The notes under the pieces were generated by a model. That model had not been told where the DNA came from and did not search any database. It saw nothing but the letters and a program-made list of their open reading frames with translations. Positions 878 to 44,325 of a DNA stretch of 64,000 bases are shown in pieces. A program made the translations under genes and the position numbers. Source of the DNA: Promicromonospora sp. MEB111 (GTDB lineage Bacteria > Actinomycetota > Actinomycetes > Actinomycetales > Cellulomonadaceae). The DNA lies in contig NZ_JARVSD010000006.1 in the NCBI RefSeq assembly GCF_030209445.1, positions 62,001 through 126,000 on the forward strand, given 5' to 3'. Each line of letters starts with the position of its first letter. Position 1 is the first letter of the stretch.

Positions 878-3060
878 GTCAGGTGGGGTGGGTCCAGGAG
901 AGGTCGGGGTGTCGGGACCGGGTGCGGGCTCGAGCAGGTGACCGGCTGGGTCGATTCGCCGGGCGTGGTTGGTGGGGTGGTGGGCTGGGTCGGTAGGCGA
1001 TCGTGCCGTGGGTGGGGGTGGTGTGGCAGCCGATCTGGTAGCGGCTGCGTGGGGTGTGGCCGGGTGCGGGGCCGGTCATGCCGACCGCGGGGGTCCATGC
1101 CGGGGTCGTGGTGCGGTCACGGGCTGCGGCTGGGCTCGGAGTGTGGTCGGTCTCGCTGGCTGCTGGTCCGTTTTTGGGCGCACTGGGGTTCTGGCCTAGG
1201 TCCGTGCCGCTGACTGCTGTCACGCCGCGTAGTGATCCAGCGTCACGAACCTGTGTCGTGCTGCTGGCCCTGACCGGTGTCGGTGGTGGGGGTGCGATCG
1301 AGACATAGGTGTGCCCCGTGGGTGTGATGGTCTCGACGGCGTGCCGGCCGTCGAGGTGGGTGGTTTTCTGTGACCAGCCGGGTGCCTGCTTGGCGTGGTT
1401 GCATCTGGCGCATAGGCCCTGGCCGTTGTCGAGGCTGGTCGGGCCGCCGTCGGTGTGTGGGGTGACGTGGTCCAGGTGACGGATCGGGGCGTCACACCAG
1501 GGGCTCGCGCAGATCCCCTGCTCCCTGGCCCGCAAGAGGCTCGCTAGTCCCTGGGGGTGGAACCGGGACGTTGAGGTGGTCGCTACCAACCGTCCGTGGG
1601 GGTTGACGTAGATCGAGCGCAGCCACGCGGTGTCGGTGTCGATCGCATGCGCGGCCAGGTGGCGGGCGACCGGGGCCGGGACGGTGCCGACCCCTGCGGG
1701 GGCGCCTTCGAGGACCACGCCGGGCTGGTCACCACCGGCCAACAGCGTCTGGTCGGAGACGAGAAGGTTGATGGTGACCGGCACATCACCCGCGTGCCCG
1801 GGGTCGCGGCCGGTGGTGCGTTCGATGAGGGTGTCGGCCATGATCTGCCCCACCCCGCGTTCGTCCCCGCCCGCCTTGGCCGTCTCGGCGTGGGCCTTGA
1901 GCTGGGCGTAGGCCTGCACGCCCTGCGCCATGGGCACCAGGGCGGTGAGGTAGACCATCAGATCGGGGCGGGCCGCACCGAGACCCGCCGCTCAGTGACC
2001 GCCCTCGCGTTGCGGTTGACGCAGGCGTGCACGTCCAGCCGGGCGGCGAGTTCCTTGATGCGGGCGACCAGGCGGCGGGTGCCCATCCGGGCCAGCTCGG
2101 CCAGGTGCTGAGGTCCGCAGATCTCCTCATCGATCAGGGCGCGGTGTTCCAGGGACAGGTGGGAGGTCTCGCGGACCAGGAGCGTGGCGCGCCACGGGGA
2201 CAGCACCCCGGCCTGCAGGGCGTTGAAGGTGTGGGGCATCTGCGTGACCCAGACCCGGGACGTGCTCACAAACCCGGCCCCTGCGTGCGGGCTCACCTGC
2301 AGGGCGGCACCGACCTGGTTCGGGACACCGCGTCCGCGCCGTTCGGCCCGGATGCTCTGCCGGCCCTCCTCGGCACGGGTTGCCTCGTCCAACGCGACCG
2401 TGAGCCGTGCCTGGGTCGCGGTGACCGTGTTCTTCACGGCCTCCAGCTCACCGAGCAGGTCGACCCACTCGGCCTGTACCGCACCGGAGACAAGAACACT
2501 GGGCCTGGTGTCAGTGGCTCCGGGCAGGATCATTCCTGCCAGCAGTTCCCGCACCGCCCGCACACCCGCCACGTCAACGACCCCGCCGGGCACAGACGCG
2601 GGCGCACCGGACGGCACGGTGCCACCGTGCTGCGGCGCGCCGTCGGGCAGCACCGATCGAGCAGGCTGTCCGCCTGCCGCCGTCAGCACCTCACCCGTTC
2701 GCGTCATGCCATCAACATATGGCACACCCGTTCGCATCGCTCGCCGAATCAACCCGATCTGCCAACAGCAGAATCGCCTGGTCGTCTGGGGGAAGCCCTT
2801 GGAGTTCGGCGGCCGGCGGCCCCGAACGGGCGGGCCGTCTCGTCGATCACGTCAGACGCTCGTCGCGGGGATGGAAACCTCAGGAACACCTGCACCAGCA
2901 CAGCCCGCACCAGCACCGACCAGCGCCGAGCCGGACAGTACGAGGCCGAGACGGGTGCGCGTATCACCGGTGAGGCGAGCGGTCCCCAACAGCGCTGCGA
3001 GCCACACCCCCTGCGCGGTTCGCCCCTCCGCCCCTCCGCGCCACCGCCCCACCGCCCCAC
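878..3060 (-). repeat. Large direct repeat, copy A (DUF222-HNH block)
   Basis: This ~2.2 kb block recurs in the same orientation at 42438-44325. Similarity begins at the GTCAGGTGG that carries the stop codon of the HNH gene (878) and runs through the gene and its upstream leader. It fades out in the CCACCGCCCCAC-rich stretch near 3060. Copy A has about 55 codons near the 3' end that copy B lacks. DUF222-HNH genes form multicopy families in actinobacteria; the REP13E12 repeats of mycobacteria are the known example. No terminal inverted repeats or transposase were seen. Confidence 0.8.
879..2707 (-). pseudogene. DUF222 / HNH endonuclease gene, copy A, frameshifted
   Basis: The 5' half (from ATG at 2707, or a further upstream start at 2752) encodes a DUF222 domain ending RRVSVRPAPI followed by TGA at 1960-1958. 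The 3' half continues in another frame as MVYLTALVPMAQG and carries the HNH nuclease motif (HLDHVTPH, then N, then CARCNHAK). Copy B reads straight through here (RPAPDLMVYL), so copy A lacks one base at about 1961-1963. The halves are joined by a TGATG overlap, so reinitiation could still give two polypeptides, but a disrupted gene is the simpler reading. The 3' half contains ~55 residues rich in Thr/Pro that copy B lacks. No good Shine-Dalgarno sequence was seen at 2707. Family: DUF222-HNH (REP13E12-like), function unproven. Confidence 0.8.
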
Positions 3061-3123
3061 CGCCCCACCGCCCCACCGCCGCAGCCTGACCCCTACGACC
3101 ACAGACCCCGTGGAATCAACGAT
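2708..3123. other. Intergenic region between HNH copy A and LacI gene
   Basis: About 415 bases without a convincing gene. The part next to the HNH gene (to ~2890) matches the leader of copy B closely, including CAGAATCGCCTG and GGGGGAAGCCCTTGGA. The distal part is diverged and ends in a short tandem repeat. Open frames here are composition-driven. Confidence 0.6.
3043..3082. repeat. 8-bp tandem repeat ACCGCCCC, ~5 units
   Basis: Four exact ACCGCCCC units (3043-3074) are followed by a variant ACCGCCGC. The equivalent place in copy B has a single CCACCGCCCCAC, so the array expanded only in copy A. Confidence 0.85.
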
Positions 3124-4125
3124 CTAGCGGAAACCGTCGCCCCGAGGCGCCGGGCCCGACGACTCGCGCAGCACCAGCTCCGTCGGCAGCCTGATCTGCT
3201 CGGCGTCCTGGGTCGCGCGCCCGGCGAACTGGTCGATCAGGAGCTCGACGGCCAAGCGGCCGGCGTGCGCGCCCGGGCCGCCGAGGGTGGTCAGCGACGG
3301 GTGGACGAACTCGGAGGCGAAGATGTCGTCGAAGCCGACCACGCTGACGTCGTCGGGGACCCGGATGCCGCGCTGCGTCAGCCGGCGGATGATGCCGAAC
3401 GCCAGCAGGTCGTTGTGGGCCACGATCGCCGTCGCCCCGGTGCGCAGCGCGCCGTCGGCCGCCGCGCCGCCGTTGGCGACGTTGGGGGTGTACGGGCCGA
3501 CACGGTGCGCCGTCAGGCCGTGCTCCTCCGCCCCGGCGCTCAGGGCCGCCCAGCGCACCGCGCCCATCCAGGACCCCGGCGGCCCGGCGCAGTAGGTAAA
3601 GCTCTGGTGCCCCAGCGAGGCGAGGTGCTCCAGGATCTGCTGGCAGCCCGTGCCGACGGCCAGCGTCACGCTGGTCAGCCCCGCCAGCTCGCGGTTGAGC
3701 AGCACCACACGGTGCTTCTCCGCCAGGGTGACCAGCGCGTCGTCGGCGAGCCTGCTGGCCGCCAGGACGAAGCCGTCCACGGTGGGTGACAGGTCGCGGA
3801 CCTGGTTCTCCTCGATGCGCTGCGACTCCTCGGCGTTGACGATCACGAGCGTGACGTCGGCCGCCTTGGCGCGCTGCTCCGCGCCGCGGATGAGCTCGAA
3901 GAAGTGTGGGTTGGTGATGTCCGACAGGACCATCGCGATGGTCCGGTGCCGTCCGCCCGGCAGCGCCCGGTTCTGCGGGCTGTGCTCGTAGCCCAGCTCG
4001 GCGGCCGCGGCGTGCACCCGTTGCCGGGTCGCCTCGTTGACCCGGCCGGGCTTGTTGAAGGTGCGGGAGACCGTCGACGCGGCCACGCCCGCCGCCTTCG
4101 CGACGTCGTAGATCGTGGGCTGCAC
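3124..4125 (-). CDS. LacI-family transcriptional regulator
   Basis: The protein has 333 residues from GTG at 4125 and begins QPTIYDVAKAAGVAASTVSR, a standard LacI helix-turn-helix with hinge-helix region by residue ~60. A periplasmic-binding-protein-like effector domain follows (MVLSDITNPHFFE, VVLLNRELAG, AIVAHNDLLAFG, VVGFDDI). A TTG at 4173 would add 16 residues but lies inside the putative operator, so GTG is preferred; neither has a clear Shine-Dalgarno sequence. It is transcribed divergently from the TRAP/shikimate operon starting at 4301, with paired TGGCAA/TTGCCA repeats between. It is therefore inferred to repress that operon and respond to a hydroaromatic acid. Confidence 0.9.
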   Translation of the reverse strand: MQPTIYDVAKAAGVAASTVSRTFNKPGRVNEATRQRVHAAAAELGYEHSPQNRALPGGRHRTIAMVLSDITNPHFFELIRGAEQRAKAADVTLVIVNAEESQRIEENQVRDLSPTVDGFVLAASRLADDALVTLAEKHRVVLLNRELAGLTSVTLAVGTGCQQILEHLASLGHQSFTYCAGPPGSWMGAVRWAALSAGAEEHGLTAHRVGPYTPNVANGGAAADGALRTGATAIVAHNDLLAFGIIRRLTQRGIRVPDDVSVVGFDDIFASEFVHPSLTTLGGPGAHAGRLAVELLIDQFAGRATQDAEQIRLPTELVLRESSGPAPRGDGFR

Positions 4126-4146
4126 CTGGGCATCTAGCCATATCGC

Positions 4147-4180
4147 TGGCAACTTTGGCAACTGCTTGCACAACTTGCCA
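4147..4180. promoter_or_regulatory. Putative LacI operator, TGGCAA repeats
   Basis: TGGCAA occurs at 4147-4152 and 4156-4161 and its exact complement TTGCCA at 4175-4180. This gives a 25-bp inverted repeat with a 13-bp spacer plus an extra direct half-site. It sits between the LacI gene and the TRAP operon, the usual place for an autoregulating LacI operator. Confidence 0.55.
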
Positions 4181-4210
4181 GGCAGTTTCTAGGGTCGCCG
4201 CAGCTACGAC

Positions 4211-4256
4211 GCCGCACACCGACGTGCGGCGACGACCGCGCCGCACACCGACGTGC
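4211..4256. promoter_or_regulatory. Duplicated palindrome upstream of TRAP operon
   Basis: GCCGCAC-accgac-GTGCGGC (4211-4230) is a perfect 7-bp inverted repeat. Its first 17 bases recur directly at 4240-4256, 29 bp downstream. It could be a second operator or a leader hairpin for the operon starting at 4301. Confidence 0.4.
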
Positions 4257-4300
4257 CGTGCCGGACGGAAGGGGATCGTCCCGATGTACGTGAACCACGC

Positions 4301-4888
4301 ATGAAGCAAGGCATCAACCGTCTCGTCAAGCTGCTCACCGGGGTGGAGCTGGCCATCGCGTGCCTGGCCACCGTGCTGATCTTCGTGCTCATCCTGTTCC
4401 AGGCGGCGCAGCGCTACCTGCCCGTGCCGCAGATCGTGTGGGCGGGCGAGCTGTCGCAGTTCGGGCTGATCTGGCTGACGTTCGTCGCGGCCGGCGTGCT
4501 GGTCACCCGCAACGGCCACATCGCCGTCCAGCTCATCGACAACTTCGGCGGCCCCGTCGTGGCGCGCGTGGTGCAGACCCTCGCGATGGCCCTGGTCGCC
4601 GTCATCTCCGCGGCCTTCACCTGGGCGTGCTGGGAGCTCGTGCACTCCGCGGGCTTCCTCACCTCGCCCGCGCTGGGGCTCCCGATGTCGTGGGTCTACG
4701 TGATCGCGCTCGTCGGCCTGGTGAGCGCGACCGTCCGCGCGGCCGTGAGCGCGGTGCAGATCGCCCGGTTCGGCCCCCCGCCGCCCGACCACGACGACCC
4801 GGCGCTCGCGCCGGGGCCGCTCGCCGGCGTGGCAGGGCTCGCCGGCCCGGAAGGGCTCACCGGCGCGGCAGGGGAGGCGTCGCGATGA
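4301..4888 (+). CDS. TRAP transporter small membrane subunit (DctQ-like)
   Basis: From ATG 4301 the protein has 195 residues. It shows four hydrophobic segments, the first at LAIACLATVLIFVLILF and the others across the middle. The DctQ-type signature W-A-G-E-L-S-Q-F follows the first segment, and RNGHIAV follows the second. The tail is cytoplasmic and low-complexity (Gly/Ala/Pro-rich). An in-frame GTG at 4253 would add 16 unlikely residues. Its stop overlaps the next start (ATGA). It partners the large permease DctM and binding protein DctP encoded next in a sodium-driven tripartite importer; the neighbouring enzymes suggest a shikimate/quinate-type substrate. Confidence 0.88.
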   Translation: MKQGINRLVKLLTGVELAIACLATVLIFVLILFQAAQRYLPVPQIVWAGELSQFGLIWLTFVAAGVLVTRNGHIAVQLIDNFGGPVVARVVQTLAMALVAVISAAFTWACWELVHSAGFLTSPALGLPMSWVYVIALVGLVSATVRAAVSAVQIARFGPPPPDHDDPALAPGPLAGVAGLAGPEGLTGAAGEASR

Positions 4889-6159
4889 CCTCCCTCCTGC
4901 TGCTGATCACGATCATGGTGCTGCTGACCCTCCGCGTCCCCGTCGCGTTCGCGTTCCTCGGGCCCGGCCTGGGCTACCTGCTCGTCGAGGGCCAGTCGCT
5001 CGGCCTGCCGATGCGCCTGGTCGCCGACGCCACCGGCAACTTCGTGCTGCTGGCCATCCCGCTGTTCATCCTGCTCGGCGTGGTCGCCAACCACGCGGGC
5101 ATCGCGGACCGGCTGTTCGACTTCGCGCTCGCGCTGTTCGGCCGGGTCCGCGGCGGGCTCGGCTACGTGAGCGTCGGCGTCAGCCTCGGCTTCTCCTGGA
5201 TGAGCGGCTCGGCGGTGGCGGACGCCGCCGCGCTGAGCAAGGTCGAGATCCCGCCGATGCTGCGCGCCGGCTACTCCCGGCGGTTCGGCCTCGGCGTCGT
5301 CGGCGCGTCCGCGCTCATCGCGCCGGTCATGCCGCCGAGCATCCCTGCGGTCATCTTCGCGGGGCTGGCGACCGTCTCGACCGGGGCGCTGTTCGCGGCG
5401 TCCGTGGTGCCGGCCCTCCTCATGGTGGTCGGCCTCTGCGTGGTGGTGTTCCTGCTGGTGCGCCGCCAGCCCGGCATCCGGCACGTCGGGTTCTCCTGGG
5501 CGCGCGTGGCCGAGACCGGCAAGCGGGTCGTGCTTCCCCTCGGGGCGCCGGTGGTCATCCTCGGCGGCATCCTGGGCGGCCTCTTCACGCCGACCGAGGC
5601 CGCGGCCGTCGGCGCCGCCTACATGATGGTGCTCGGCTTCGCCTACCGCAGGCTCACGGTGAGCGACCTGCCCAAGATCTTCGTCGAGACGGTGCTGACC
5701 ACGGCGGCGATCATGCTGATCGTCTCGTCCGCCGCGCTGCTCGGGTACGTGCTGGCCCTGGAACGGGTACCCCAGGCGCTGGCCCAGCTCGTGCTCGGGA
5801 TCACCGACGACGGCACCGTGTTCCTGCTGCTGGTGCTGCTCCTGATGCTGGTGCTCGGCACGGTGGGCGACGCGACGCCCATCCTGGTGCTCGTCGTGCC
5901 CATCCTCATGCCGATCGCCACCGCCCTTGGCGTCGACCCGCTCGTGCTCGGCGTCGTGATGATCATCTCGCTGATGATCGGGCTGCTCACGCCACCGGTC
6001 GGCACGGTCCTGTTCGTCCTCAGCTCGACCCAGAAGGTGCCGGTCGCCGAGGTGTTCTGGGGCACCCTCCCGTTCATGGTGCCGCTGACCCTGTGCTGCG
6101 TGCTGATCATCTTCTTCCCCGGCCTCGCCACCTGGCTGCCGGCCCAGCTCGGCCTCTGA
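4885..6159 (+). CDS. TRAP transporter large permease (DctM-like)
   Basis: This is a 424-residue, highly hydrophobic protein with 12 or more membrane segments and the DctM family length. Typical features are IPLFILLGVVANHAG in the N-terminal third, SGSAVADAAALS, APVMPPSIPAVI, LFTPTEAAAVGA at mid-protein and LLTPPVGTVLFV near the C-terminus. It starts at ATG 4885 overlapping the DctQ stop. It forms the ion-coupled translocation channel with DctQ and receives substrate from DctP. TRAP systems are commonest in proteobacteria and less typical of actinobacterial carbon uptake. No frame damage was seen. Confidence 0.93.
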   Translation: MTSLLLLITIMVLLTLRVPVAFAFLGPGLGYLLVEGQSLGLPMRLVADATGNFVLLAIPLFILLGVVANHAGIADRLFDFALALFGRVRGGLGYVSVGVSLGFSWMSGSAVADAAALSKVEIPPMLRAGYSRRFGLGVVGASALIAPVMPPSIPAVIFAGLATVSTGALFAASVVPALLMVVGLCVVVFLLVRRQPGIRHVGFSWARVAETGKRVVLPLGAPVVILGGILGGLFTPTEAAAVGAAYMMVLGFAYRRLTVSDLPKIFVETVLTTAAIMLIVSSAALLGYVLALERVPQALAQLVLGITDDGTVFLLLVLLLMLVLGTVGDATPILVLVVPILMPIATALGVDPLVLGVVMIISLMIGLLTPPVGTVLFVLSSTQKVPVAEVFWGTLPFMVPLTLCCVLIIFFPGLATWLPAQLGL

Positions 6160-6176
6160 ACCGAAAGGACTCCCTC

Positions 6177-7202
6177 ATGAACGTTCGTCGCACCACCGCC
6201 GCGAGCGCGGCCGTGGCCCTGCCCCTCGCCCTGCTGACCGCCTGCGGCGGCACCGGCAACGGGCCCGACGCCGCCGCCGGAGGCGGCCAGGTCGAGCTGA
6301 CGCTCGCCCACAGCTACACCGAGGACCAGCCGCAGCACGTCTGCGGCGCCCAGGTCATCAAGGAGGAGGCCGAGGCGGCGGACGTCGGTATCACCGTCGA
6401 GATCTACCCCAACAGCCAGCTCGGCGGCGACGCCGACCGGATCGCGTCCGTGCAGGCCAGCGACGTGGACATCGACATCCAGGGCGCCTCGGCGCTCGCC
6501 GCCGTCTACGAGCCGGCCGGTGTGGTCGACGCGGCCTACGTGTTCGACGACGCCGCCCACCTGGACCGGTTCTTCGCCGACGGCTCGGCCGACCAGCTCG
6601 AGCAGGACTTCAAGGAGGCCTCCGGCGGTGTGTCGATCCTCGGCGCCTGGTCGGCCGGGGCGCGGCAGTTCACCGCGGACCGGGCGATCCGTGAGCCCGC
6701 GGACCTCGACGGCCTGCGGATGCGGTTCCCGGGCTCGGCGCAGCACCTGCGCAACGCCCAGGCCCTCGGCGCCCAGGCGACCGAGGTCGCCTACGAGGAG
6801 CTCTACCTGGCCCTGCAGCAGGGGGTCGTGGACGGGCAGGAGAACCCGATCACCAACATCCACGCCAGCAACCTCGTCGAGGTGCAGGACTACCTGAGCC
6901 TGTCGGACCACGGGCAGAACTCGAACCTCATCGTGGCCGCGCCGTCGTACGACGCCGAGCTGGACGACGACCAGCGTGCCGCCCTGGCCGCGGCCGTCGC
7001 GGCCGCCGTCGAGCAGATGCCCGGCTGCGTCGAGGAGGCCGAGCAGGAGATCCTCGACACCTGGGAGCAGGAGGGCGCCGTCGAGATCGTCGACGACGTG
7101 GACCAGGAGGCCTTCGCGCAGCAGACCGACACCTGGTTCCGGGAGAACCTCGAGGGCGACTCGCTCGTGGTCTACGAGGCCATCCGGGGCTCCGCACGGT
7201 GA
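6177..7202 (+). CDS. TRAP transporter substrate-binding lipoprotein (DctP-like)
   Basis: The protein has 341 residues from ATG 6177, preceded by AAAGGA at 6164-6169. It has a lipoprotein signal with lipobox LLTAC and predicted lipidated Cys23, as expected for tethering in a monoderm. The body is DctP-like: LAHSYTEDQPQHV at the start, YPNSQLGGDADRI, then ADLDGLRMRFPG, and YEELYLALQQGVVDGQENP, the signature TRAP element that includes the ligand-binding region. It delivers the acid substrate to DctQM. Its stop overlaps the GTG of the shikimate dehydrogenase gene, tying import to catabolism. Confidence 0.93.
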   Translation: MNVRRTTAASAAVALPLALLTACGGTGNGPDAAAGGGQVELTLAHSYTEDQPQHVCGAQVIKEEAEAADVGITVEIYPNSQLGGDADRIASVQASDVDIDIQGASALAAVYEPAGVVDAAYVFDDAAHLDRFFADGSADQLEQDFKEASGGVSILGAWSAGARQFTADRAIREPADLDGLRMRFPGSAQHLRNAQALGAQATEVAYEELYLALQQGVVDGQENPITNIHASNLVEVQDYLSLSDHGQNSNLIVAAPSYDAELDDDQRAALAAAVAAAVEQMPGCVEEAEQEILDTWEQEGAVEIVDDVDQEAFAQQTDTWFRENLEGDSLVVYEAIRGSAR

Positions 7203-8128
7203 CGCGGCCGGCCCGCCGGTACCGGGTGGCGCTCCTGGGGAACGGCATCCGGGCGTCGCTGTCGCCCGCGCTGCACATGGAGGAGGCGCGGCACCTCGGC
7301 CTCGACTACGAGTACCGCACGGTGGACCTCATCGACCGCACCGCCGTGGACCTCGGCGCCGAGCTCGGCCGGCTGGAGGACGCCGGCTACGCCGCCACCA
7401 ACGTGACCCACCCGTACAAGCAGACCGTGCTGGACCACGTGACGGACCTCAGCCCGACCGTGCGCCGGCTCGGTTCCGCCAACCTGGTGCTGTTCGGCGC
7501 GGGCCGGCGCACCGCGCACAACACCGACTGCCCCGGGTTCCGCGGCGCCCTCGCGACGTTCCTCGCCGCCGGCGGCGCCGCGGGCACCGTGCTACCGACA
7601 GGCACCGTTCTCCGGACAGGCACCGTGCTCCAGGTCGGCGCCGGGGGAGCGGGCCTCGCCACGGTCGCGGCGCTGCTCGACCTGGGGTTCCGCACCGTCG
7701 TCGTGCACGACGCCGTCCCGGCGGCGGTCGCGACCCTGCTCGACCGGTTCGCCCCGGTGACCTCGCCCCGCCTCCTGCCCAGCGGCGGCACGCTCGACAC
7801 CTGGCTGCCGCGGGTCGACGGCGTCGTGCACGTCACCCCGGTCGGCATGGCCGAGCACCCCGGGGTCGCCTTCGAGGTCGACCGGCTCGACCCCGCGGCC
7901 TGGGTGGCCGAGGTGGTCTACCGGCCCCTGGAGACCGAGCTGCTGCGCCGCGCGCGGGCGCGCGGCCTGGCGACGCTCGACGGCGGCGGGATGGCCGTGG
8001 GCCAGGCCGTCGAGAGCCTCCGGCTGATCACCGGCCTCGAACCCGACACCGCGCGCATGCACGCCCACTTCCGTCGGCTCGTCGCCGGACCCGACACCCT
8101 CGCCGGACCCGACCCTCTGGAGGCCTGA
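7199..8128 (+). CDS. Shikimate/quinate 5-dehydrogenase family (AroE/QuiB-like)
   Basis: The protein has 309 residues from GTG 7199. It has the Ser-Leu-Ser substrate motif (S20, S22 in RASLSPALH), NVTHPYKQ with the catalytic Lys74, HNTD with Asp110, and the Rossmann glycine loop GAGGAG at 147-152. These interconvert shikimate or quinate with the 3-dehydro form using NAD(P). Its place between a TRAP importer and a dehydroshikimate dehydratase points to catabolic rather than biosynthetic use. A 6-residue unit (GTVLPT, GTVLRT, GTVLQV) is repeated just before the Rossmann strand. Whether quinate or shikimate is preferred cannot be told from sequence. Confidence 0.88.
   Translation: MTRPARRYRVALLGNGIRASLSPALHMEEARHLGLDYEYRTVDLIDRTAVDLGAELGRLEDAGYAATNVTHPYKQTVLDHVTDLSPTVRRLGSANLVLFGAGRRTAHNTDCPGFRGALATFLAAGGAAGTVLPTGTVLRTGTVLQVGAGGAGLATVAALLDLGFRTVVVHDAVPAAVATLLDRFAPVTSPRLLPSGGTLDTWLPRVDGVVHVTPVGMAEHPGVAFEVDRLDPAAWVAEVVYRPLETELLRRARARGLATLDGGGMAVGQAVESLRLITGLEPDTARMHAHFRRLVAGPDTLAGPDPLEA
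7583..7636 (+). repeat. In-frame 18-bp tandem repeat within the dehydrogenase gene
   Basis: Three diverged 18-base units each begin GGCACCGT (7583, 7601, 7619) and encode GTVLPT-GTVLRT-GTVLQV. The last is the normal first strand of the Rossmann domain, so two extra units appear to have been added. Confidence 0.75.
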
Positions 8129-8129
8129 C

Positions 8130-9968: not shown

Positions 9969-9984
9969 TCGCCGGCCCGACCGG

Positions 9985-10326: not shown

Positions 10327-10373
10327 GGACACTCCTTGGGCTGGTCGGGGCTCTTGAGGCGTTGACGGGCGGC

Positions 10374-34870: not shown

Positions 34871-34932
34871 GAAGGGGCTCCTTTGTCGGCGACGACGGTC
34901 GGTCGCCACATGCTAGGACGTGTGCGGGACCC

Positions 34933-34948
34933 CGTGACACAGGTCACG
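34933..34948. promoter_or_regulatory. CRP-like site CGTGA-N6-TCACG in stem-loop
   Basis: CGTGACACAGGTCACG fits the CRP/GlxR-type pattern TGTGA-N6-TCACA with symmetric end changes. It is part of a longer imperfect inverted repeat (34926-34954). It lies between the divergent PhzF and membrane-protein genes. Confidence 0.5.
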
Positions 34949-35075
34949 GGTCCCGGGTGAGGGACCAATGCCGGGGCCGGCGGGACCTTCGGCTCCTGTC
35001 CGCCGGTCCCGGCCGGCGGAGACTGGTACCAGGAGTGCGGCACGGGCTCGGCTCGGCACGGACCCGGCGGAGGTG

Positions 35076-35570
35076 ATGACCGTGCAGGACGCGATGCTCG
35101 TGATCATCCTGTGGGTGACCTGCGGGATCGCGACGGTCGTTGCGGGCCTGCTGGCCTACCGGAGCTCGGTGGCGCGGTACGTGGGGCGGGGCGCCGTGGG
35201 CGTCCTGTTCCTCCTGGGCGGCGCGGTCGTGCACCTGGTCAACCTCGTCACCGGGGTCGACTACGGCGACTTCGCCGACCCGTCGTTCTTCGGCTGGGTG
35301 ACCGACACGTGGCACGAGGTCGTGGAACCGAACCAGGTCCTGTTCATCGGCATGCTGGCGGCGTTCGAGGCAGTGGTGGGGGTGCTGGCGATGTGCGGCG
35401 GCCGCCTGACCCGGTTCGCCTACCGGTGCGTGATCGTCTTCTACCTCGCCCTGTGGCTCTTCGGGTGGATGGAGCTGGCGTGGGTGCTGCTCATGCTCCC
35501 GCCGATGTTCCTGCTGCTGCGTGCCGAACGGTGGGCGGCGGTCGCCGGCGAGACCGCCCGGACCGGCTGA
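35076..35570 (+). CDS. Small integral membrane protein, unknown
   Basis: The protein has 164 residues from ATG 35076; GTG 35082 is two codons later and better spaced from GGAGG, so the true start may be there. About four or five hydrophobic segments are visible: AMLVIILWVTCGIATVVAGLL, GRGAVGVLFLLGGAVVHLVNL, NQVLFIGMLAAFEAVVGVLA, YRCVIVFYLALWLFGW and AWVLLMLPPMFLLL. A short outward loop contains DYGDFADPSFFGWVTDTWHEVV. I recognise no family motif. Divergent from the PhzF-like gene, with a CRP-like site between. Confidence 0.75.
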   Translation: MTVQDAMLVIILWVTCGIATVVAGLLAYRSSVARYVGRGAVGVLFLLGGAVVHLVNLVTGVDYGDFADPSFFGWVTDTWHEVVEPNQVLFIGMLAAFEAVVGVLAMCGGRLTRFAYRCVIVFYLALWLFGWMELAWVLLMLPPMFLLLRAERWAAVAGETARTG

Positions 35571-35598
35571 GCGCCGGGGCTCGGCCGGCCCGGGTGCC

Positions 35599-36582: not shown

Positions 36583-36802
36583 GGTGACTCCGCTCAGGCC
36601 CGGCGGTCGCCGCGCTCCGGTGCGCGGCGGCGCGGATGCCGCCCGGGCCGTTCGGGGTCGAATCTCTTGCGTGCGCGGTCCGGGGGTCAAGGTGATGATG
36701 CGACCTATCAACCCCGGGCGCGTTCACCTCCTGGCCATGGTCCGGCCACGCGTGCCTCGTAGCGTCGCGTCCGCACCGATTTCCGAACCGGGGAGAACAC
36801 TG

Positions 36803-38194
36803 ATGTCATCCGCACCCGTACGCCTTCGACGGCTGCTCGCGACCGTCGCCGCCGGCACGACGGCCGCCGCGACGATCGCCGCGCTGGCCACCGCACCCGT
36901 GGCCGCCGCGGCCGAGCCCAAGCCCGAGGTGGACGGCGTGAGCGAGCTCAACGTGCTCGCGTTCAACGTGTGGCACGGCGGCACGCAGATCGACGACGGC
37001 GCGCGGGAGATCGCCGACATCCTGACGGAGACCGACGCCGACGTGACGTTCCTGCCCGAGCAGGGCGACGCGCCCGCGCAGGTGGCCGCGCTGCTCGGCT
37101 ATGACCACGTGACCGCGACCGACACCGGCATCGTGTCGCGCTACCCGATCCTGGAGACCAGCACGGTCGACCGCTGGTGGACCAAGGCCGTGCTCGACGT
37201 GAACGGCACCGAGGTGGTGGCCTACGGCGGCCACCTGGAGTACCGCTGGTACGCCACGTACCTGCCGCGCGGCTACGGCGGCGCGGTACAGGGCGACTGG
37301 CCCGACGGCTGGGACACGTGGGACAAGCTGCCGGGCGGCCCCGTCACCGACGTGGACGCGGTCCTGGAGGCCAACCGGCAGTCCGGCCGCCCGGCCACGG
37401 CAGCCGCACTCGTCGCCGACGTCCAGGCCGAGCGTGCCGCGGGCCGCATCGCCGTGGTCGGCGGCGACTTCAACGAGCCGTCGGTGCAGGACTGGACGGA
37501 GGAGACCGCGGACCTGCAGGACCACAACGGCCTGGTGATCCCGTGGCAGTCCACGAAGATGCTGCTCGACGGCGGGCTGGTCGACGCGTTCCGCGAGGTC
37601 TACCCCGACCCGGTCGCGAACCCCGGCGTCACCTGGCCGTCCGACAACCCGCTCTTCCCGACGTCGGAGCTCACCTGGGCGCCCGAGGCCGACGAGCGCG
37701 ACCGGATCGACTACGTGTTCGTCACGCCCGACGAGCGGGTCACGATCGACGACGCGGCCGTGGTGGGGCCGCAGTCGACGATCGTGCGGAACGAGCGGGT
37801 CGAGGACGACAGCGCCGACGAGATCCGCACGCCGGACGCCGTCTGGCCGTCCGACCACAAGGCCGTGCTGGCCTCGTTCAGCGTGTGCGACGACGCCTGC
37901 GCCCCGGCCGTCCCCGCCTGGGACGCGTCGGCGGTCTACACCGCGGGTGACGAGATCTCGTACGAGGGCTCCACGTGGCGGGCGGCGTGGTGGACGCGCG
38001 GCCAGGAGCCGGGTGCGCCGTACGGGCCGTGGGAGCAGATCGCCGAGCAGGACGGCGCGGCGCGGTGGACGCCGTCGCGCATCTTCGAGGCCGGGTCCGT
38101 GGCCGTGCACGAGGGCCGCACCTACGTGGCGCAGTGGTGGACGCGCAACGAGAAGCCCGGCACGCCGTGGGGACCGTGGCGGGCGCAGGCCTAG
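36803..38194 (+). CDS. Secreted endonuclease/exonuclease/phosphatase-family enzyme with two CBM5/12 modules
   Basis: The protein has 463 residues from ATG 36803. The signal peptide ends near APVAAAAE. EEP-fold motifs follow: LNVLAFNVWHGG, the metal Glu in FLPEQGD, GGDFNEPS and WPSDHKAVL. At ~370 and ~418 come two ~43-residue modules with the chitin-binding CBM5/12 pattern: WDASAVYTAGDEISYEGSTWRAAWWTRGQEPG then WTPSRIFEAGSVAVHEGRTYVAQWWTRNEKPG, each ending GPW. EEP enzymes cleave nucleic acids, sphingomyelin or phosphoesters; attachment of chitin-binding modules is uncommon and suggests action at a polysaccharide surface. Confidence 0.86.
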   Translation: MSSAPVRLRRLLATVAAGTTAAATIAALATAPVAAAAEPKPEVDGVSELNVLAFNVWHGGTQIDDGAREIADILTETDADVTFLPEQGDAPAQVAALLGYDHVTATDTGIVSRYPILETSTVDRWWTKAVLDVNGTEVVAYGGHLEYRWYATYLPRGYGGAVQGDWPDGWDTWDKLPGGPVTDVDAVLEANRQSGRPATAAALVADVQAERAAGRIAVVGGDFNEPSVQDWTEETADLQDHNGLVIPWQSTKMLLDGGLVDAFREVYPDPVANPGVTWPSDNPLFPTSELTWAPEADERDRIDYVFVTPDERVTIDDAAVVGPQSTIVRNERVEDDSADEIRTPDAVWPSDHKAVLASFSVCDDACAPAVPAWDASAVYTAGDEISYEGSTWRAAWWTRGQEPGAPYGPWEQIAEQDGAARWTPSRIFEAGSVAVHEGRTYVAQWWTRNEKPGTPWGPWRAQA

Positions 38195-38196
38195 CC

Positions 38197-38340
38197 TCAC
38201 CCAGGACTCGACCGCTCGACGAGCGCCGCCACCGACACGCGCGACGCGAGCCCCGGCCAGGCGACCACCACCACGGCGACGTCGTCGAACCTGGGCTGGG
38301 CGGCCTCGCGGACGCGGGAGTCTTGCAGGGGCGTAACAAC
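38197..38340 (-). other. Possible gene remnant
   Basis: The reverse strand reads open through REAAQPRFDDVAVVVVAWPG and ends ALVERSSPG, with no start in context. The DDVAVVVV string is faintly like the C-terminal strand of PP2C/SpoIIE phosphatases. It may be coincidental coding in GC-rich DNA. The rest of 38195-38373 is the promoter area of the two-component genes. Confidence 0.2.
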
Positions 38341-38373
38341 TCGGCCGGTGCGCTCGCGGTTACGCTGCCGGGC

Positions 38374-39072
38374 ATGGGAGCACGCGTCGAGGTCATGGTC
38401 GTCGAGGACGACGAGACCGTCCTGGCCGTGGTCTCCGACTACCTGGGCGGCCGCGGGTACGCCGTCACGGCGCTGCGCGACGGGCTCGTGGCCCGCGACG
38501 CACTGCGCACGGCGCGCCCGGACGTGCTGGTCCTGGACCGGATGCTGCCCGGCGTCAGCGGCGACGAGCTGTGCCGCCAGGTCCGCGCGGCCGCGCCGCG
38601 CACGCCGATCATCATGCTCACCGCCCTGGACGCCGTGGAGCAGCGGATCGACGGGCTGGAGCACGGCGCCGACGACTACGTGGTCAAGCCGTTCGCGCTG
38701 CGGGAGCTCCAGCTCCGGATCGACGCCCTGGTCCGGCGCAGCCGCGGGCTGCACGTCGCGCCGTCGCCGTTCACACTGGGGCCGTTCCGCGTCGACCCCG
38801 CGCACCGGCGCATCTGGGCGGCCGACGCCGAGATGACGCTCACGTCCCGGGAGTACGAGCTGTTCCTGTTCCTGCTGCAGAACCCGGACCGCACCCTGAC
38901 GCGGGACGACCTCCTGCGCGAGGTGTGGGGCTGGAGCTTCGGCGAGGCGTCCACCGTGACCGTGCACGTGCGGCGGCTGCGCGAGAAGATCGAGCCCGAG
39001 CCGCGGTTCCCGCGCTACCTGCTCACCGAGTGGGGGCGCGGCTACCGCTTCACCGTCGGGGCCGCCGCATGA
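38374..39072 (+). CDS. OmpR/PhoB-family response regulator
   Basis: The protein has 232 residues from ATG 38374. The receiver has acidic residues VVEDDE (11-14), phosphoacceptor Asp55 in VLVLDRMLPG, Thr83 and Lys105 in VVKPFALREL. The winged-helix output has LTSREYELFLFLLQNPDRTLTRDDLLREVWGWSF and VTVHVRRLREKIEPEP, then LLTEWGRGYRF. It is translationally coupled (ATGA) to its kinase. The signal and regulon are not evident from neighbours. Confidence 0.95.
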   Translation: MGARVEVMVVEDDETVLAVVSDYLGGRGYAVTALRDGLVARDALRTARPDVLVLDRMLPGVSGDELCRQVRAAAPRTPIIMLTALDAVEQRIDGLEHGADDYVVKPFALRELQLRIDALVRRSRGLHVAPSPFTLGPFRVDPAHRRIWAADAEMTLTSREYELFLFLLQNPDRTLTRDDLLREVWGWSFGEASTVTVHVRRLREKIEPEPRFPRYLLTEWGRGYRFTVGAAA

Positions 39073-40226
39073 TGCTCACCCCGGTCGACCTGCTGCTCAT
39101 CCTCGCAACCGCCGCGGTGTGCACGGCGGCGATCACGCTGCTCGCGCTCCTGGTCCTGCGCCGCCGCCGGCAGCGCTCGGTCACCGCCCCGTTCGTGGTC
39201 CTGGTGGTCGCGGCGATCGCGTCCATCGTCTGCTCGACCCTCGTGATCGCGGCCCTGATGTACCTTTCGCTGCACGACCTGCAGGTGCTCCTGTGGGTGG
39301 TCGGGCTGTCCGCGGTGCTGAGCCTCACCACGATCCTGCTCACCGCCCGCGCCGTGAGCCGGTCGTTCACCCACCTGGGGGACGCGGTCGAGCGCGTGGG
39401 CCGCGGCGCCGTCGTCAGCCCCGAGGCCTACGCGGCCAGGGAGCTCGCCGACCTCTCCACGCAGCTCGCCGTCGCCTCGGAGCGGCTCGCCGCGGCCCGC
39501 GCCGAGATCGAGCAGCTCGATGCGGCACGCCGCCAGTTCTTCGCCTGGATCTCGCACGACCTGCGCACCCCGCTGACCGGGGTCAGCGCCCTTGCCGAGG
39601 CACTGGACGACGGCGCCGTCGCGGACCCGGCCGACTACGTCCGGCGCATCCGGGTGCAGGTCGCCACGATGAACCGGCTGGTCGACGACCTGTTCGAGCT
39701 GTCGCAGATCCAGAGCGGCGCGCTGCGGCTCCGCCGGGAGGACGTCGCGCTGCTGGACGTGGTGTCCGACGCCGTGGCGGACGTGCACCAGCTCGCCGTC
39801 GCGAAGCAGATCGGCATCGAGCACGCGGGCGTCGCCGGCCGGACGGTGCGCGCCGACCCGCACGAGCTGACCCGGGTGGTGGTGAACCTGCTGACCAACA
39901 GCATCCGCCACGCCCCGGCCGGGTCCGAGGTCCTGGTCTCCGCGGAACAGCGCGGCGACCGGCTGGTGCTCTCCGTGCTCGACCAGGGCAGCGGCGTCGA
40001 CGGCGAGGACCTCACGCGCATGTTCGAGATCGGCTGGCGGGCCAGCGCCGCCCGGACACCCGACGCGGGGGTCCCTTCCGGATCGCCCGCCGCTGGGTCG
40101 CCCGGCGCGGGGCTCGGGCTGGCCATCGTCCGAGGCATCGTCGAGGCGCACGGCGGGGACGTGCGGGCCGCGCACGTGCCGCAGGGTTTCCGGCTCGACG
40201 TCACGCTGCCCGCCTCGGCGACCTGA
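39069..40226 (+). CDS. Two-component sensor histidine kinase (EnvZ/OmpR class)
   Basis: The protein has 385 residues from ATG 39069. Membrane segments at ~8-30, ~40-65 and ~70-93 leave only short external loops, so it senses within or near the membrane. A HAMP-like linker follows, then a HisKA helix with FAWISHDLRTPLTG (His163), the N-box VVVNLLTNSIRHAP, DQGSGVDGEDL and GAGLGLAIVRGIVEAHGG. A Pro/Gly/Ser-rich insert lies before the last motif. It phosphorylates the regulator encoded just upstream. Confidence 0.94.
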   Translation: MMLTPVDLLLILATAAVCTAAITLLALLVLRRRRQRSVTAPFVVLVVAAIASIVCSTLVIAALMYLSLHDLQVLLWVVGLSAVLSLTTILLTARAVSRSFTHLGDAVERVGRGAVVSPEAYAARELADLSTQLAVASERLAAARAEIEQLDAARRQFFAWISHDLRTPLTGVSALAEALDDGAVADPADYVRRIRVQVATMNRLVDDLFELSQIQSGALRLRREDVALLDVVSDAVADVHQLAVAKQIGIEHAGVAGRTVRADPHELTRVVVNLLTNSIRHAPAGSEVLVSAEQRGDRLVLSVLDQGSGVDGEDLTRMFEIGWRASAARTPDAGVPSGSPAAGSPGAGLGLAIVRGIVEAHGGDVRAAHVPQGFRLDVTLPASAT

Positions 40227-40295
40227 GCGGCCCCGCGACGGCGTCCGGCGTGGGCGGTTCGGCGCGCCTCGAATCGATCTGATAGAACGTGCGCC

Positions 40296-41225
40296 ATGAC
40301 CTCTCCGCAGATCGGTGTCGTGCTCCCGCGTGACCTGCCCGCCGCCCAGGTGCTCCCGTACGCGCGCACCGCGGAGCGGCTCGGCTTCGACGAGCTCTGG
40401 GTCGTGGAGGACCTGGGCTTCCGTGGCGGGCTGGTGCAGGCCGCCGCCGTGCTGGGCGCGACCGAAGGCATCCGCGTCGGCATCGGGATCCTGCCCGCCG
40501 CGGTGCGCAACCCCGCCTTCGCAGCGATGGAGATCGCCACGCTGGAGCAGCTCCACCCCGGCCGCACCGACGTCGGCGTCGGGCACGGCATGCCGGGCTG
40601 GATGCGGCAGGCGGGCGCCTGGCCCGCGCGGCCCCTCACCTACCTCGCGGAGTACGTGACCACGCTCCGGACCCTGCTCGGCGGTGGGGAAGCCGGCGAC
40701 CTGCGGCTCGACCCCTCGGCGGTGCCCGACGCCGTGCCGCCCCTGCTGCTCGGCGTGCGCGGCCCGCGGTCCCTGGCGGCGTCCGGCAGGGTGGCCGACG
40801 GCACCGTGCTCGCCGAGCCCGTCGGCCCCGAGTACGCCGCGGCCGCCCTCGACGCGATCGCCCCGCGGGGCGGGCACCGGCTGGTGGCCTACAACATCGG
40901 CGCCGTCGACGACGACGCGGCGGCCGCGCTGCGGACCGCCCGGCCCGGCCTCGAGTGGATCGGCGAGCCCGACTGGGCGCCGCACGTCGCGCCGCTCCCG
41001 TTCGCCGAGGAGTTCGCGGCGCTGCGCGCCTCGTCCGCCTCCCGCGCGGAGTTCGTCGAGCGCCTGCCCGACGAGTGGGTCGCCCGCCTCGCGCTGGCGG
41101 GCACGCCCGCCCAGGTGCGGGAGCGAATCGACGAGCTCGGCCGCGCAGGCGTCACGTCCAGCGTCTTCATCCCCGTCGGGCCCGAGCCGCTGGAGGCGCT
41201 CGACGCGCTGGCCCGGGTGCTGTGA
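40296..41225 (+). CDS. LLM-class (F420-type) flavin-dependent oxidoreductase
   Basis: The protein has 309 residues from ATG 40296. It is a luciferase-like TIM barrel with PYARTAERLGFDELWVVEDLGFRGG, GIRVGIGILPAAVRNP, ATLEQLHPGRTDVGVGHG, the inner strand LLLGVRGPRSLAASGRVADGTVLAEP and C-terminal AGTPAQVRERIDELGRAGV. This is the pattern of F420-dependent reductases common in actinobacteria. Its stop overlaps the GTG of the MFS gene (GTGA), so the two are probably co-expressed. Substrate unknown. Confidence 0.9.
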   Translation: MTSPQIGVVLPRDLPAAQVLPYARTAERLGFDELWVVEDLGFRGGLVQAAAVLGATEGIRVGIGILPAAVRNPAFAAMEIATLEQLHPGRTDVGVGHGMPGWMRQAGAWPARPLTYLAEYVTTLRTLLGGGEAGDLRLDPSAVPDAVPPLLLGVRGPRSLAASGRVADGTVLAEPVGPEYAAAALDAIAPRGGHRLVAYNIGAVDDDAAAALRTARPGLEWIGEPDWAPHVAPLPFAEEFAALRASSASRAEFVERLPDEWVARLALAGTPAQVRERIDELGRAGVTSSVFIPVGPEPLEALDALARVL

Positions 41226-42451
41226 GCGCGCACCTGACGCCGTCGGCGCAGCGCCGGCGGGCCGCCCTGTTCGTGTCCTTCTTCATGACCGGCGTGTCCA
41301 TGGCCACGTGGGTGTCCCGCACGCCCGCCATACGTGACGCGACCGGTGCGAGCACGGCGGAGATGGGGCTGATCATCGCCGGGCTGTCGGCGGGCTCGAT
41401 GGTGGGTATCGCCGTGGCCGGCACCCTGGTGGCCCGGCGCGGCGCCCGGTTCGTCGTGCTGTGGGGCATGGTCGCGATCGTGCTCGGCGTCGCCGTGGTG
41501 GCGCTCGGCACCGCGGCCGGGCAGGGCTGGCTCGTGGCCACGGGCCTGGCGTCGTTCGGGTACGGCATGGGCTCGGGCGAGATCGGGCAGAACGTCGAGG
41601 GCGTCGACGTCGAGCGGGCGCTCCGGCGCACCGTGGTGCCCAGCCTGCACGGCAGCTACAGCTTCGGCATCTGCGTGGGCGGGCTCGTGGGCCTGGGCGC
41701 GAACCTGGTGCACGTCCCGGTGGCGGCCCACCTGCTGGCGGTCGCCGCGCTGACGGCGGTCGCCTCGGTCGTGCTCGTGGCCAACCTCGCGCCCGCCGTC
41801 GGCCGCGAGGACGCCGACGCGGGGCAGCGGCGCCGTCCGCTCGGCGAGACCGTTGGCGCGTTCCTCGCGGTGTGGCGCGAGCGGCGCACCCTGGCCATCG
41901 GCGTGATCGTGCTGGGCATGGCCCTGGCCGAGGGGTCGGCGAACGACTGGCTGCCGCTGATCATGGTCGACGGGTTCGACCTGTCGGCCGCGACGGCGTC
42001 GCTGATCTACGCGTTCTTCGGCCTGTCCATGGCGATCGGGCGGTTCGGCGGCGGGTACTTCCTGGACCGGTTCGGCCGCACGCCGGTGATGGTGGTCAGC
42101 GCGCTGCTCGCGATCGTCGGCATCGGCCTGGTGTCGTTCGCGCCGTCCGCCTGGCCGGCCGCGGTCGGCGTGCTGCTCTGGGGGATCGGCGCCTCACTGG
42201 GTTTCCCGGTCGCCCTTTCGGCGGCCGGAGACGACCCGCTGAACGCCGCACGCCGCGTGAGCGCCGTCGCCACGGCGGGCTACACCGCGTTCCTGGTGGG
42301 GCCGCCCCTGCTCGGGTTCGTCGGCGAGCACCTGACCCTGAGGCTCGCGATCCTGCTGGTCATGGTGCTGGTCGCGGTCTCGGCCTGCTTTGCCCGCGCG
42401 GTCACCCCGCCGGCGGGTGCGGCGCGCCCGTCCTCGCGTCAGGTGGAGTGA
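41222..42451 (+). CDS. MFS transporter
   Basis: The protein has 409 residues from GTG 41222, with 12 predicted membrane spans. It has the N-half loop GTLVARRGARFVVLWG and the C-half loop GGGYFLDRFGRTPVMVVSA, both MFS motif-A-like. The first span reads ALFVSFFMTGVSMATWVSRTPAIRDATG, as in fucose-permease-like/YbjJ-type proteins. Its last codons (RQVE, stop at 42449-42451) lie within the repeat block B and overlap the 3' end of the HNH gene by 13 bp, so the native C-terminus may have been replaced by the repeat. Confidence 0.9.
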   Translation: MSAHLTPSAQRRRAALFVSFFMTGVSMATWVSRTPAIRDATGASTAEMGLIIAGLSAGSMVGIAVAGTLVARRGARFVVLWGMVAIVLGVAVVALGTAAGQGWLVATGLASFGYGMGSGEIGQNVEGVDVERALRRTVVPSLHGSYSFGICVGGLVGLGANLVHVPVAAHLLAVAALTAVASVVLVANLAPAVGREDADAGQRRRPLGETVGAFLAVWRERRTLAIGVIVLGMALAEGSANDWLPLIMVDGFDLSAATASLIYAFFGLSMAIGRFGGGYFLDRFGRTPVMVVSALLAIVGIGLVSFAPSAWPAAVGVLLWGIGASLGFPVALSAAGDDPLNAARRVSAVATAGYTAFLVGPPLLGFVGEHLTLRLAILLVMVLVAVSACFARAVTPPAGAARPSSRQVE

Positions 42452-44325
42452 GTCCAGGAGAGGTCGGGTCGACGTGATCGGGCGCGGGCTCGACCAGGTG
42501 GCCCGTGGGCCGGGCGTGGCTGCGGACGTGGTGGGCTGGGTCGGTAGGCGATCGCGCTGTGGGTGGGCGTGGTGTGGCAGCCGATCTGGTAGCGGCTGCG
42601 TGGGGTGTAGCCGGGTGCGGGGCCGGTCATGCCGACGGCGGGGGTCCAAACCGGGGTCGGGGGTGGGGGCGCGACCGAGACATAGGTGTGCCCCGTCGGA
42701 GTGACCGTCTCGACGGCGTGCCGCCCGTGGATCTGGGTGGTCTTCTGTGACCAGCCCGGTGCCTGCTTCGCGTGGTTGCACCGGGCGCACAGACCTTGAC
42801 CGTTGTCGAGGCTGGTCGGGCCGCCCTCGGCGTGCGGGGTCACGTGATCCAGGTGACGCACGGGGGCGTCGCACCAGGTGGTGGCACAGATCCCCTGCTC
42901 CCGGGCCCGCAACAGGCTCGCTAGTCCCTGGGGGTGGAACCGGGACGTCGACGTGGTCGCTACCAACCGTCCGTGGGGGTTGACGTAGATCGAGCGCAGC
43001 CACGCGGTGTCGGTGTCGATCGCATGTGCCGCCAGGTTCCGGGCGACCGGGGCCGGGACGGTGCCGACCCCTGCGGGGGTGCCTTCAAGGACCACAGCGG
43101 GCTCGTCGCCACGGGCGAGAAGGGTCTGGTCGGAGACGAGCAGGTTGATCGTGACCGGCACATCCTCGGCATGGCCGGGCTCGCGTCCGGTGGTGCGCGA
43201 GGGTGTCGGCCATGATCTGCCCCACCCCACGCTCGTCCCCCGTGGCCTTGGTGGTCTGGGCGTGAGTCTTGAGCTGGGCGTAGGCCTGGACACCCTGGGC
43301 CATCGGGACCAAGGCGGTCAGGTAGACCATCAGGTCCGGTGCCGGGCGGATGGACACCCGTCGTTCGGTCACCGCGCGCGCGTTGCGCTTCACGCACGCG
43401 TGCACGTCCAGCCGGGCGGCGAGTTCCTTGATGCGGGCGACCAGGCGGCGGGTGCCCATCCTCGCCAGCTCCGCCAGATGTGCCGGGCCGCAGATCTCCT
43501 CGTCGATCAGGGCACGGTGTTCCACCGTCAGGTGGGAGGTCTCCCGCACCAGGAGCGTGGCCCGCCACTGGGACAACACCCCCGAGCGCAGCGCGTTGAA
43601 CGTGTGGGGCATCTGCGTGACCCACACCCGGGACGTGCTCACGAACCCAGCCCCTGCATGCGGGCTCACCCGCAACGCAGCACCGACCTGGTTCGGCACC
43701 CCGCGACCCTGCCGCTCGGCGCGAATGGACTGCCGGGCCTCCTCGGCACGCGTGGCCTCGTCCAGGACGACCGCCAGCCGTGCTTGGGTCGCGGTGATCG
43801 CGTTCTTGACCGCCTCCAGCTCACCGAGCAGGTCGACGCATTCGGCCTGCACGGCCCGCGCATCCACGACCGAGTCAACAGCACCAGACCTGGTGTCAGT
43901 GGCTCCGGGCAGGATCATGCCTGCCAGTAGTTCCCGCACCGCCCGCACGCCCGCCACGTCAACGACCCCGCCGGGCACGGGCGCACCGGACGCCCTGTCG
44001 CCATCGGGCAGCACAGGGCGAACAGGCTGTCCGCCCGCCGCCGTCAGTACCTCACCCGTTCGCGTCATGCCATCAACATATGGCACACCCGTTCGCACCG
44101 CTCGTCGAACCAACCCGATCTGCCGACAGCAGAATCGCCTGCTCGTCTGGGGGAAGCCCTTGGAACTCGGCGGCCGGCGGCCCGAACGGACGGTCGTCTC
44201 GTCGATCACGCCAGACGCTCGTCGCGGGGACGGAAACCTCAGGGACACCCGTGCGGGCCACAGCACAGGACCGCGCAGCACAGGACCGCGCGGTTCGCCC
44301 GACTGCCCACCGCCCCACGACGCCG
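42438..44325 (-). repeat. Large direct repeat, copy B (DUF222-HNH block)
   Basis: This is the counterpart of 878-3060, same orientation, ~39 kb away. Similarity starts at GTCAGGTGG, includes both domains and the leader (CAGAATCGCCTG, GGGGGAAGCCCTTGGA), and ends near CCACCGCCCCAC at ~44310-44322. It lacks the 55-codon segment and the expanded octamer array of copy A. Confidence 0.8.
42439..44068 (-). pseudogene. DUF222 / HNH endonuclease gene, copy B, frameshifted
   Basis: From ATG 44068 (TRTGEVLTAAGG) the DUF222 part reads through the site broken in copy A (RPAPDLMVYLTALVP). It loses frame after GQIMADTL at about 43200. There copy A has GTGCGTTCGATGAGGG on the plus strand and copy B GTGCGCGAGGG, a net 5-base loss. 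The remaining HNH part continues in another frame (REPGHAEDVPVTINLL) with an intact nuclease motif HLDHVTPHAEGG...CARCNHAK and ends at 42439. No overlap-restart signal is evident at the break. Together copies A and B contain one complete intact gene sequence. Confidence 0.8.

What the first reader, a model, noticed from the sequence alone, without database searches (positions are those of the whole stretch)
879..44068. Two DUF222-HNH genes broken at different, complementary places
Copy A (879-2707) lost one base near 1961, in the DUF222 part, where copy B reads RPAPDLMVYL intact. Copy B (42439-44068) lost a net five bases near 43200, where copy A reads through. Between them one complete reading frame exists, so gene conversion or crossing over between the copies could rebuild an active nuclease gene. 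This gives a switch-like potential, or simply two independent decays.
Basis: partly seen in the sequence, partly recalled or inferred. Interest (0 to 1): 0.72.

Follow-up and report, generated by a model that had tools for sequence, protein, structure and literature searches.

The report
Broken copies in a gene-converting family
The two damaged genes are not a matched pair but two members of a family of about ten related DNA-cutting-enzyme genes in a soil bacterium, several of them undamaged, whose copies appear to overwrite one another and so stay alike within each genome.

Summary
Copy A (879-2707) and copy B (42439-44068) are DUF222-HNH genes, each broken by one private frameshift at a different place. 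The "complementary pair" comes from seeing only two copies. The host, a Promicromonospora, has eight complete copies plus four contig-end pieces; five of the eight complete copies are open. B's position holds an open copy in three relatives.

Following the exchange idea gave a stronger result: concerted evolution. Six of eight complete copies sit where another Promicromonospora also has a copy, with orthologous flanks on both sides. Yet a 28-copy tree groups copies by genome, and all seven position-clade tests (six positions) were rejected (p at most 6.2e-4). A shares a recent conversion-like tract with open copy C35 (window 879-1109). A-B exchange is not significant.

Homologs in other genera often carry SOS boxes (17 of 28, against 30 of 443 control tiles). 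M. tuberculosis REP13E12 is the known parallel. A alone is bounded by an inverted repeat with CTAG ends. An A/B switch is not supported.

The parts
879..2707 (-). Copy A, DUF222-HNH gene, broken by a one-base frameshift at about 1967
   Evidence: Frames; lesion private, 27 of 27 other copies have a letter there
1386..1493 (-). HNH motif of copy A
   Evidence: Pfam HNH, 30.5 bits, cut-off 21.4
879..1109 (-). Conversion-like tract shared by A and the open copy C35
   Evidence: 94 concordant variable sites in a row, p 0.0005 with 2000 permutations; 227 of 229 bases identical at unit positions 1601-1829
2708..3127 (-). 5' leader of copy A with the left-end motif (3092-3119) shared with C33, C35 and C9e
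2714..2735 (-). Conserved promoter-like block of A: degenerate SOS-like box (2720-2735) and TATGTT (2714-2719), 6 bases before the ATG
   Evidence: Same block in ten of ten own copies with a known 5' end; 3 of 12 mismatches to the SOS consensus
802..837 (+). Right arm of the imperfect inverted repeat around copy A, with CTAG at 802-805
   Evidence: 36 nt, 81% complementary to 3092-3127; longer arms score 49 against a shuffle maximum of 32
3092..3127 (-). Left arm of the same inverted repeat, with CTAG at 3124-3127
42439..44068 (-). Copy B, DUF222-HNH gene, broken by a five-base loss at about 43199
   Evidence: Frames; lesion private, 27 of 27 other copies have letters there
42763..42855 (-). 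HNH motif of copy B
   Evidence: Pfam HNH, 30.9 bits, cut-off 21.4
44069..44249 (-). 5' leader of copy B homologous to A's leader; SOS-like box 44081-44096 and TATGTT 44075-44080
   Evidence: A-B match reaches 44249; block
41228..42451 (+). MFS transporter gene convergent with B; it anchors the position of B in other species
   Evidence: Pfam MFS_1; orthologs followed by a DUF222-HNH gene in G009, G010 and G004
44420..44812 (+). Glyoxalase-like gene on the other side of B
   Evidence: Pfam Glyoxalase_6; same neighbour in G010, 92% identical
3124..4173 (-). LacI-type regulator gene beside A; no DUF222-HNH gene beside its orthologs in 5 of 5 relatives
   Evidence: Pfam LacI

Best explanation
A and B are two decaying members of a dispersed DUF222-HNH gene family of about ten copies. 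Most complete copies sit at conserved chromosomal positions, but homologous exchange between positions (gene conversion, presumably RecA-dependent) keeps the copies within a genome more alike than copies at the same position in sister species. Open members are under purifying selection. Each lesion is a private accident; an open paralog could in principle overwrite it, so no A-B partnership is needed. Shown here: the lesions, the family, the shared positions, the clustering by genome, the A-C35 tract. Inferred: that conversion is the process, that it is ongoing, and that SOS control and the HNH nuclease contribute to it.
For: Five of eight complete copies open. Both-flank positional partners for 6 of 8 complete copies. 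Clustering by genome and rejection of all 7 position-clade tests, which cover six positions; the same on third positions and on both halves. B-locus profile: ortholog identity drops and paralog identity is higher inside the unit. A-C35 and C31-C15 tracts survive correction on both site sets. dN/dS 0.19-0.31 in ten of ten pairs of open copies. Distant member C32b does not show the effect.
Against: No isolates or reads, so no exchange was seen in progress. G000 copies form two groups, not one. The A-B pair has no significant tract. Two of eight complete copies (A, C33) lack a both-flank partner, and the tree alone cannot tell conversion from repeated replacement of whole copies. The control is weak for C34, whose relatives elsewhere (54-55%) are barely closer than own paralogs (50-51%).
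Confidence: 0.8

Rival explanations
1. A and B are a recombination switch: exchange between the two broken copies turns one nuclease gene on or off.
For: The lesions are at different places and the copies are 87% identical.
Against: Five open copies exist already; no significant A-B tract; open copies at B's position in three relatives.
Confidence: 0.03
2. Simple independent decay: A and B are dying copies and exchange plays no part in their fate.
For: Both lesions are private; C31 is broken too, by its own lesion.
Against: A carries a near-identical 3' tract with C35, so A has exchanged DNA fairly recently.
Confidence: 0.45
3. The lesions are base-calling or assembly errors and both genes are in fact open.
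For: One lesion is a single base at a run of C; contig ends fall inside four other copies, so this repeat troubled the assembly. No reads are available.
Against: B's loss is five bases, not a typical homopolymer slip; 5 of 8 copies in the same assembly read cleanly.
Confidence: 0.15
4. The units are mobile and enter the same places again and again in each species, which would also make copies cluster by genome.
For: A has inverted-repeat ends, CTAG outside, and no copy beside the LacI orthologs in 5 of 5 relatives. The left-end motif is found at C33, C35 and C9e as well.
Against: DNA just beyond the stop codon differs between copies, so I see no common target. Orientation and junction at B are nearly the same in G009 and G004. 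No right-hand arm at the other nine own copies with a known right flank (best of these C32, 5 mismatches, p 0.03).
Confidence: 0.1
5. Programmed frameshifting makes full-length protein from the two-frame genes.
For: Each broken copy has two long frames.
Against: The lesions differ in place and size and are private; the other copies in the alignment have letters at these sites and five own copies read through in one frame.
Confidence: 0.01

Closest known systems
REP13E12 (13E12 repeat) family of Mycobacterium tuberculosis
   Same: Multi-copy HNH/DUF222 genes (PMC10589994, passage); a strong gene-conversion network (87 events; preprint PMC13061034, passages); several members in the LexA regulon (PMC5005354, passage).
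   Different: Here the signature is between species: copies at shared positions cluster by genome. The SOS-like box of A and B is degenerate. A link to prophage attachment sites was not tested.
Insertion sequences
   Same: A has a 36-nt imperfect inverted repeat at its ends and CTAG outside and no copy beside the LacI orthologs of 5 relatives.
   Different: I found no transposase gene within the unit; the other nine own copies with a known right flank show no right arm; six of eight complete copies keep positions shared between species.
Homing endonucleases with HNH domains (general knowledge)
   Same: An HNH nuclease gene whose family is spread by recombination would look similar.
   Different: No intron, intein or occupied-against-empty allele pair was shown here; cutting activity was not tested.

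Membership tests
DUF222-HNH (13E12-type) family | DUF222 domain | tested here: met
   Six-frame search of the genome: B's 5' half 30.6 bits and copies C33, C35, C32, C11 over the cut-off of 24.4. A's 5' half only 19.9 bits, and hmmscan did not list B's 5' half.
DUF222-HNH (13E12-type) family | C-terminal HNH motif | tested here: met
   A 30.5 bits, B 30.9 bits, cut-off 21.4.
DUF222-HNH (13E12-type) family | Several dispersed copies in one genome | tested here: met
   Eight complete copies and four contig-end pieces.
REP13E12 | Interlocus gene conversion | tested here: met
   by inference from clustering and tracts.
REP13E12 | SOS (LexA) control | tested here: inconclusive
   A and B: 3 of 12 mismatches. 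Homologs of other genera: 17 of 28 with a box. No expression data.
REP13E12 | Prophage attachment site within the repeat | not tested
   Mentioned for M. tuberculosis in PMC13061034 (passage).
Insertion sequence | Terminal inverted repeats | tested here: inconclusive
   Present at A; none of 27 other tested copies rises above its shuffle maximum.
Insertion sequence | Transposase gene | tested here: inconclusive
   The only gene recognised in the A and B units is DUF222-HNH; the short leader frames were not searched.
Insertion sequence | Empty site in a close relative | tested here: inconclusive
   The LacI side of A lacks a copy in 5 of 5 relatives, but the other flank is not next to it there.

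The most novel reading that the evidence does not exclude
The DUF222-HNH unit is a self-preserving selfish gene. When DNA damage induces it, its nuclease cuts or nicks at its relatives, recombination copies one member over another, and broken members such as A and B form a pool that open members can overwrite. Now and then a unit jumps: A, bounded by inverted repeats and CTAG, would be such a new insertion.
Probability: 0.15. Interest if true: 0.8.

Novelty: new member of a known kind. Interest (0 to 1): 0.5.

Why it matters
DUF222-HNH genes are many in actinobacteria and their role is unknown. Evidence that they evolve in concert at conserved positions in a soil genus, while open copies stay under purifying selection, makes the features reported for M. 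tuberculosis (SOS control, gene conversion) testable in a soil organism. It also warns that "complementary" pseudogenes seen in one window may be ordinary members of a larger family.

Tried and rejected
Rejected: A/B as the only source of an open frame; programmed frameshift; a single initiating site, since third-position identity within genomes shows no consistent peak along the gene. Led nowhere: defence-family search (two of three proteins without a hit, the third with one weak hit, E 0.0054); NCBIfam (no relevant hit for three proteins); solved relatives by sequence (0 hits at E up to 1, one protein). The model of homolog L072 (mean pLDDT 70.9, pTM 0.58) had no PDB match with E under 1; several weak hits are ParB/Noc DNA-binding chains, probability at most 0.44, a lead only. 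A and C33 sit at synteny junctions that I could not reconstruct.

Rows dropped before counts; of 39 loci from other genera 28 were counted (the others had no long frame with the HNH pattern or too little DNA upstream); of 34 Promicromonospora loci 25 were counted, 7 with a box against 18 of 423 tiles. Control tiles there are mostly coding DNA, the tested stretch partly not; 28 of 35 aligned rows used (rows with 1000 or fewer core letters dropped); three of 23 relative rows had no DNA upstream and were skipped; of 23 relative rows 19 hold both parts in one frame; G004_C181 is broken, G004_C3 and G011_C13 lie at contig ends, and G004_C189 lacks the 5' part for a reason I did not settle.

Full report
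Observation. Both genes are broken as described. A reads from ATG 2707 to a premature stop at 1958, and its HNH half is open in another frame (1991-879). B reads from ATG 44068 past 43200 to a stop at 43085, and its HNH half is open from 43317 to 42439. Pfam finds HNH in both 3' halves (30.5 and 30.9 bits, cut-off 21.4). DUF222 is weak in A's 5' half (19.9 bits, cut-off 24.4); B's 5' half passes the cut-off in the six-frame genome search (30.6 bits), though hmmscan listed nothing for it. In a 28-copy alignment each lesion is private: 27 of 27 other copies have letters there. A and B agree at 1412 of 1617 aligned bases.

Host and family. The best named matches are Promicromonospora (P. sukumoe, 80%). 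The genome (6.2 Mb, 35 contigs) has eight complete copies (A, B, C33, C35, C32, C11, C31, C15) and four contig-end pieces. Five of the eight complete copies have one open frame (C33, C35, C32, C11, C15); A, B and C31 are broken. So "between them one complete frame" is true but not special. Of the 20 copies of relatives in the tree, one (G004_C181, with a 77-base insert) is broken by the same inspection.

Positions. The MFS gene convergent with B has close orthologs in G010, G004 and G009 (88-91% protein identity), and in all three a DUF222-HNH gene follows it in the same orientation, with open frames of 794, 649 and 710 codons. In G009 and G004 the end junction is nearly the same as here; G010 has about 0.9 kb of extra DNA there. 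G006, with a 73-75% similar MFS gene, has no copy in the 10 kb fetched. Flank comparison gives partners with both flanks for B, C35, C32, C11, C31 and C15: 6 of 8 complete copies. C33 shares its 3' flank with copy-bearing loci (G010_C12, G004_C189), while its 5' flank lies elsewhere in G010. A has no positional partner.

Concerted evolution. Each of the eight complete G000 copies is closest to other G000 copies, not to its positional partner. Along the B locus most flanking bins match orthologs at 87-96%, with some lower bins (75-81%) and a poorly aligned stretch beyond the unit's 5' side; inside the unit ortholog identity is mostly 74-89%, while paralogs A, C33 and C35 reach 79-94%. In the 28-copy tree all 8 G010 copies, all 4 G004, all 3 G005 and both G009 copies group by genome (G009 with modest support, 87/77), and the G000 copies form two groups of four (100/99 and 90/91). 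All seven position-clade tests, covering six positions, were rejected, p from 6.2e-4 to 1.9e-66. Third positions, 5' half and 3' half need 7, 8 and 7 changes of genome label (least possible 7) and 13 of position label (least possible 6). As a control within the family, the distant member C32b has relatives of 61-86% identity, in one or two segments, in seven genomes (G004, G006, G007, G008, G009, G010, G012) and 47-55% in the other five, against 49-51% for its own paralogs. For the distant member C34 the contrast is small: 54-55% for the best relatives, 50-51% for own paralogs.

Tracts. A permutation test on 586 variable sites among the eight copies gives p 0.0005, the floor of 2000 permutations, for A-C35, C33-C31, C33-C15 and C31-C15. 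On 338 third positions A-C35 (0.0005) and C31-C15 (0.001) survive correction for 28 pairs. A and C35 agree at 227 of 229 bases at the 3' end; their other bins mostly lie between 75 and 95%. A-B gives 0.011 and 0.0395, which does not survive. No consistent peak runs along the gene.

Selection and promoter. All ten pairs among the five open G000 copies have dN/dS 0.19-0.31. Just upstream of the ATG, ten of ten G000 copies with a known 5' end share the block GCGAAC-N4-GTGYCATA[TG]GTTGATG[GA]CATGA; relatives keep it with changes. In homologs from other genera an SOS box with at most 2 mismatches stands near the gene start in 17 of 28, against 30 of 443 control tiles, in many cases followed directly by a TA-rich -10-like stretch and an ATG. 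Within Promicromonospora the figures are 7 of 25 against 18 of 423. Of four distant own members, C34 and C3 have a box with 1 mismatch, C32b with 2, and C33b no better than 3. In A and B the site has 3 mismatches of 12; 154 of 127,970 window positions on both strands do as well. SOS control of A and B is therefore an inference from kinship. The consensus was typed from general knowledge; passages of PMC9380542 on S. venezuelae LexA sites show similar sequences.

Copy A as an insertion. Arms 802-837 and 3092-3127 are 81% complementary over 36 nt. The longer comparison scores 49 against a maximum of 32 in 300 shuffles; none of 27 other tested copies rises above its own shuffle maximum. CTAG stands at both outer ends; the one at 3124-3127 holds the TAG stop of the LacI gene. 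The left-end motif lies at only four places in the genome at up to 3 mismatches, all at units (A twice, C33, C9e), against 0 for the control; C35 has a variant; one place in G004 with 3 mismatches is the only other match in 13 genomes. LacI orthologs in 5 of 5 relatives have no copy beside them. A may be a newer insertion or an end-to-end rearrangement; one copy cannot decide.

Known work. REP13E12, described as HNH/DUF222 (PMC10589994, passage), is one of the strongest gene-conversion networks of M. tuberculosis (87 events; preprint PMC13061034, passages), and several 13E12 genes are in its LexA regulon (PMC5005354, passage); a mismatch-repair role has been suggested (PMC4181829, passage). 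My searches listed no title on concerted evolution of DUF222-HNH genes outside mycobacteria; only listings were seen apart from the papers named, lists were capped, and the library lacks most subscription journals. I therefore file this as a new member of a known kind, with a between-species signature.

Noticed in passing
window 802-3127: Imperfect inverted repeat with CTAG at both outer ends around copy A; the left-end motif is also at C33, C35 and C9e.
   Followed up: partly
window 173-802, + strand: Reading frame with a weak TIR_2 match (E 5.7e-6, 27.2 bits, just under the cut-off of 28) directly beside copy A.
   Followed up: no
L113 (G000 C33) with L206 and L214; L232 with L204 and L209: C33 joins flanks that lie apart in G010; and the position of the G010_C10b and G009_2 copies seems to have no copy in G000 (about C33:120645-121559).
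   Followed up: partly
L119 end, L120 start, L121 start, L122 end: Four contig ends fall inside copies of this family; in other Promicromonospora records several matches also lie at contig ends.
   Followed up: no
model of homolog L072: Weak structural resemblance to ParB/Spo0J/Noc DNA-binding chains (E over 1, probability at most 0.44).
   Followed up: no
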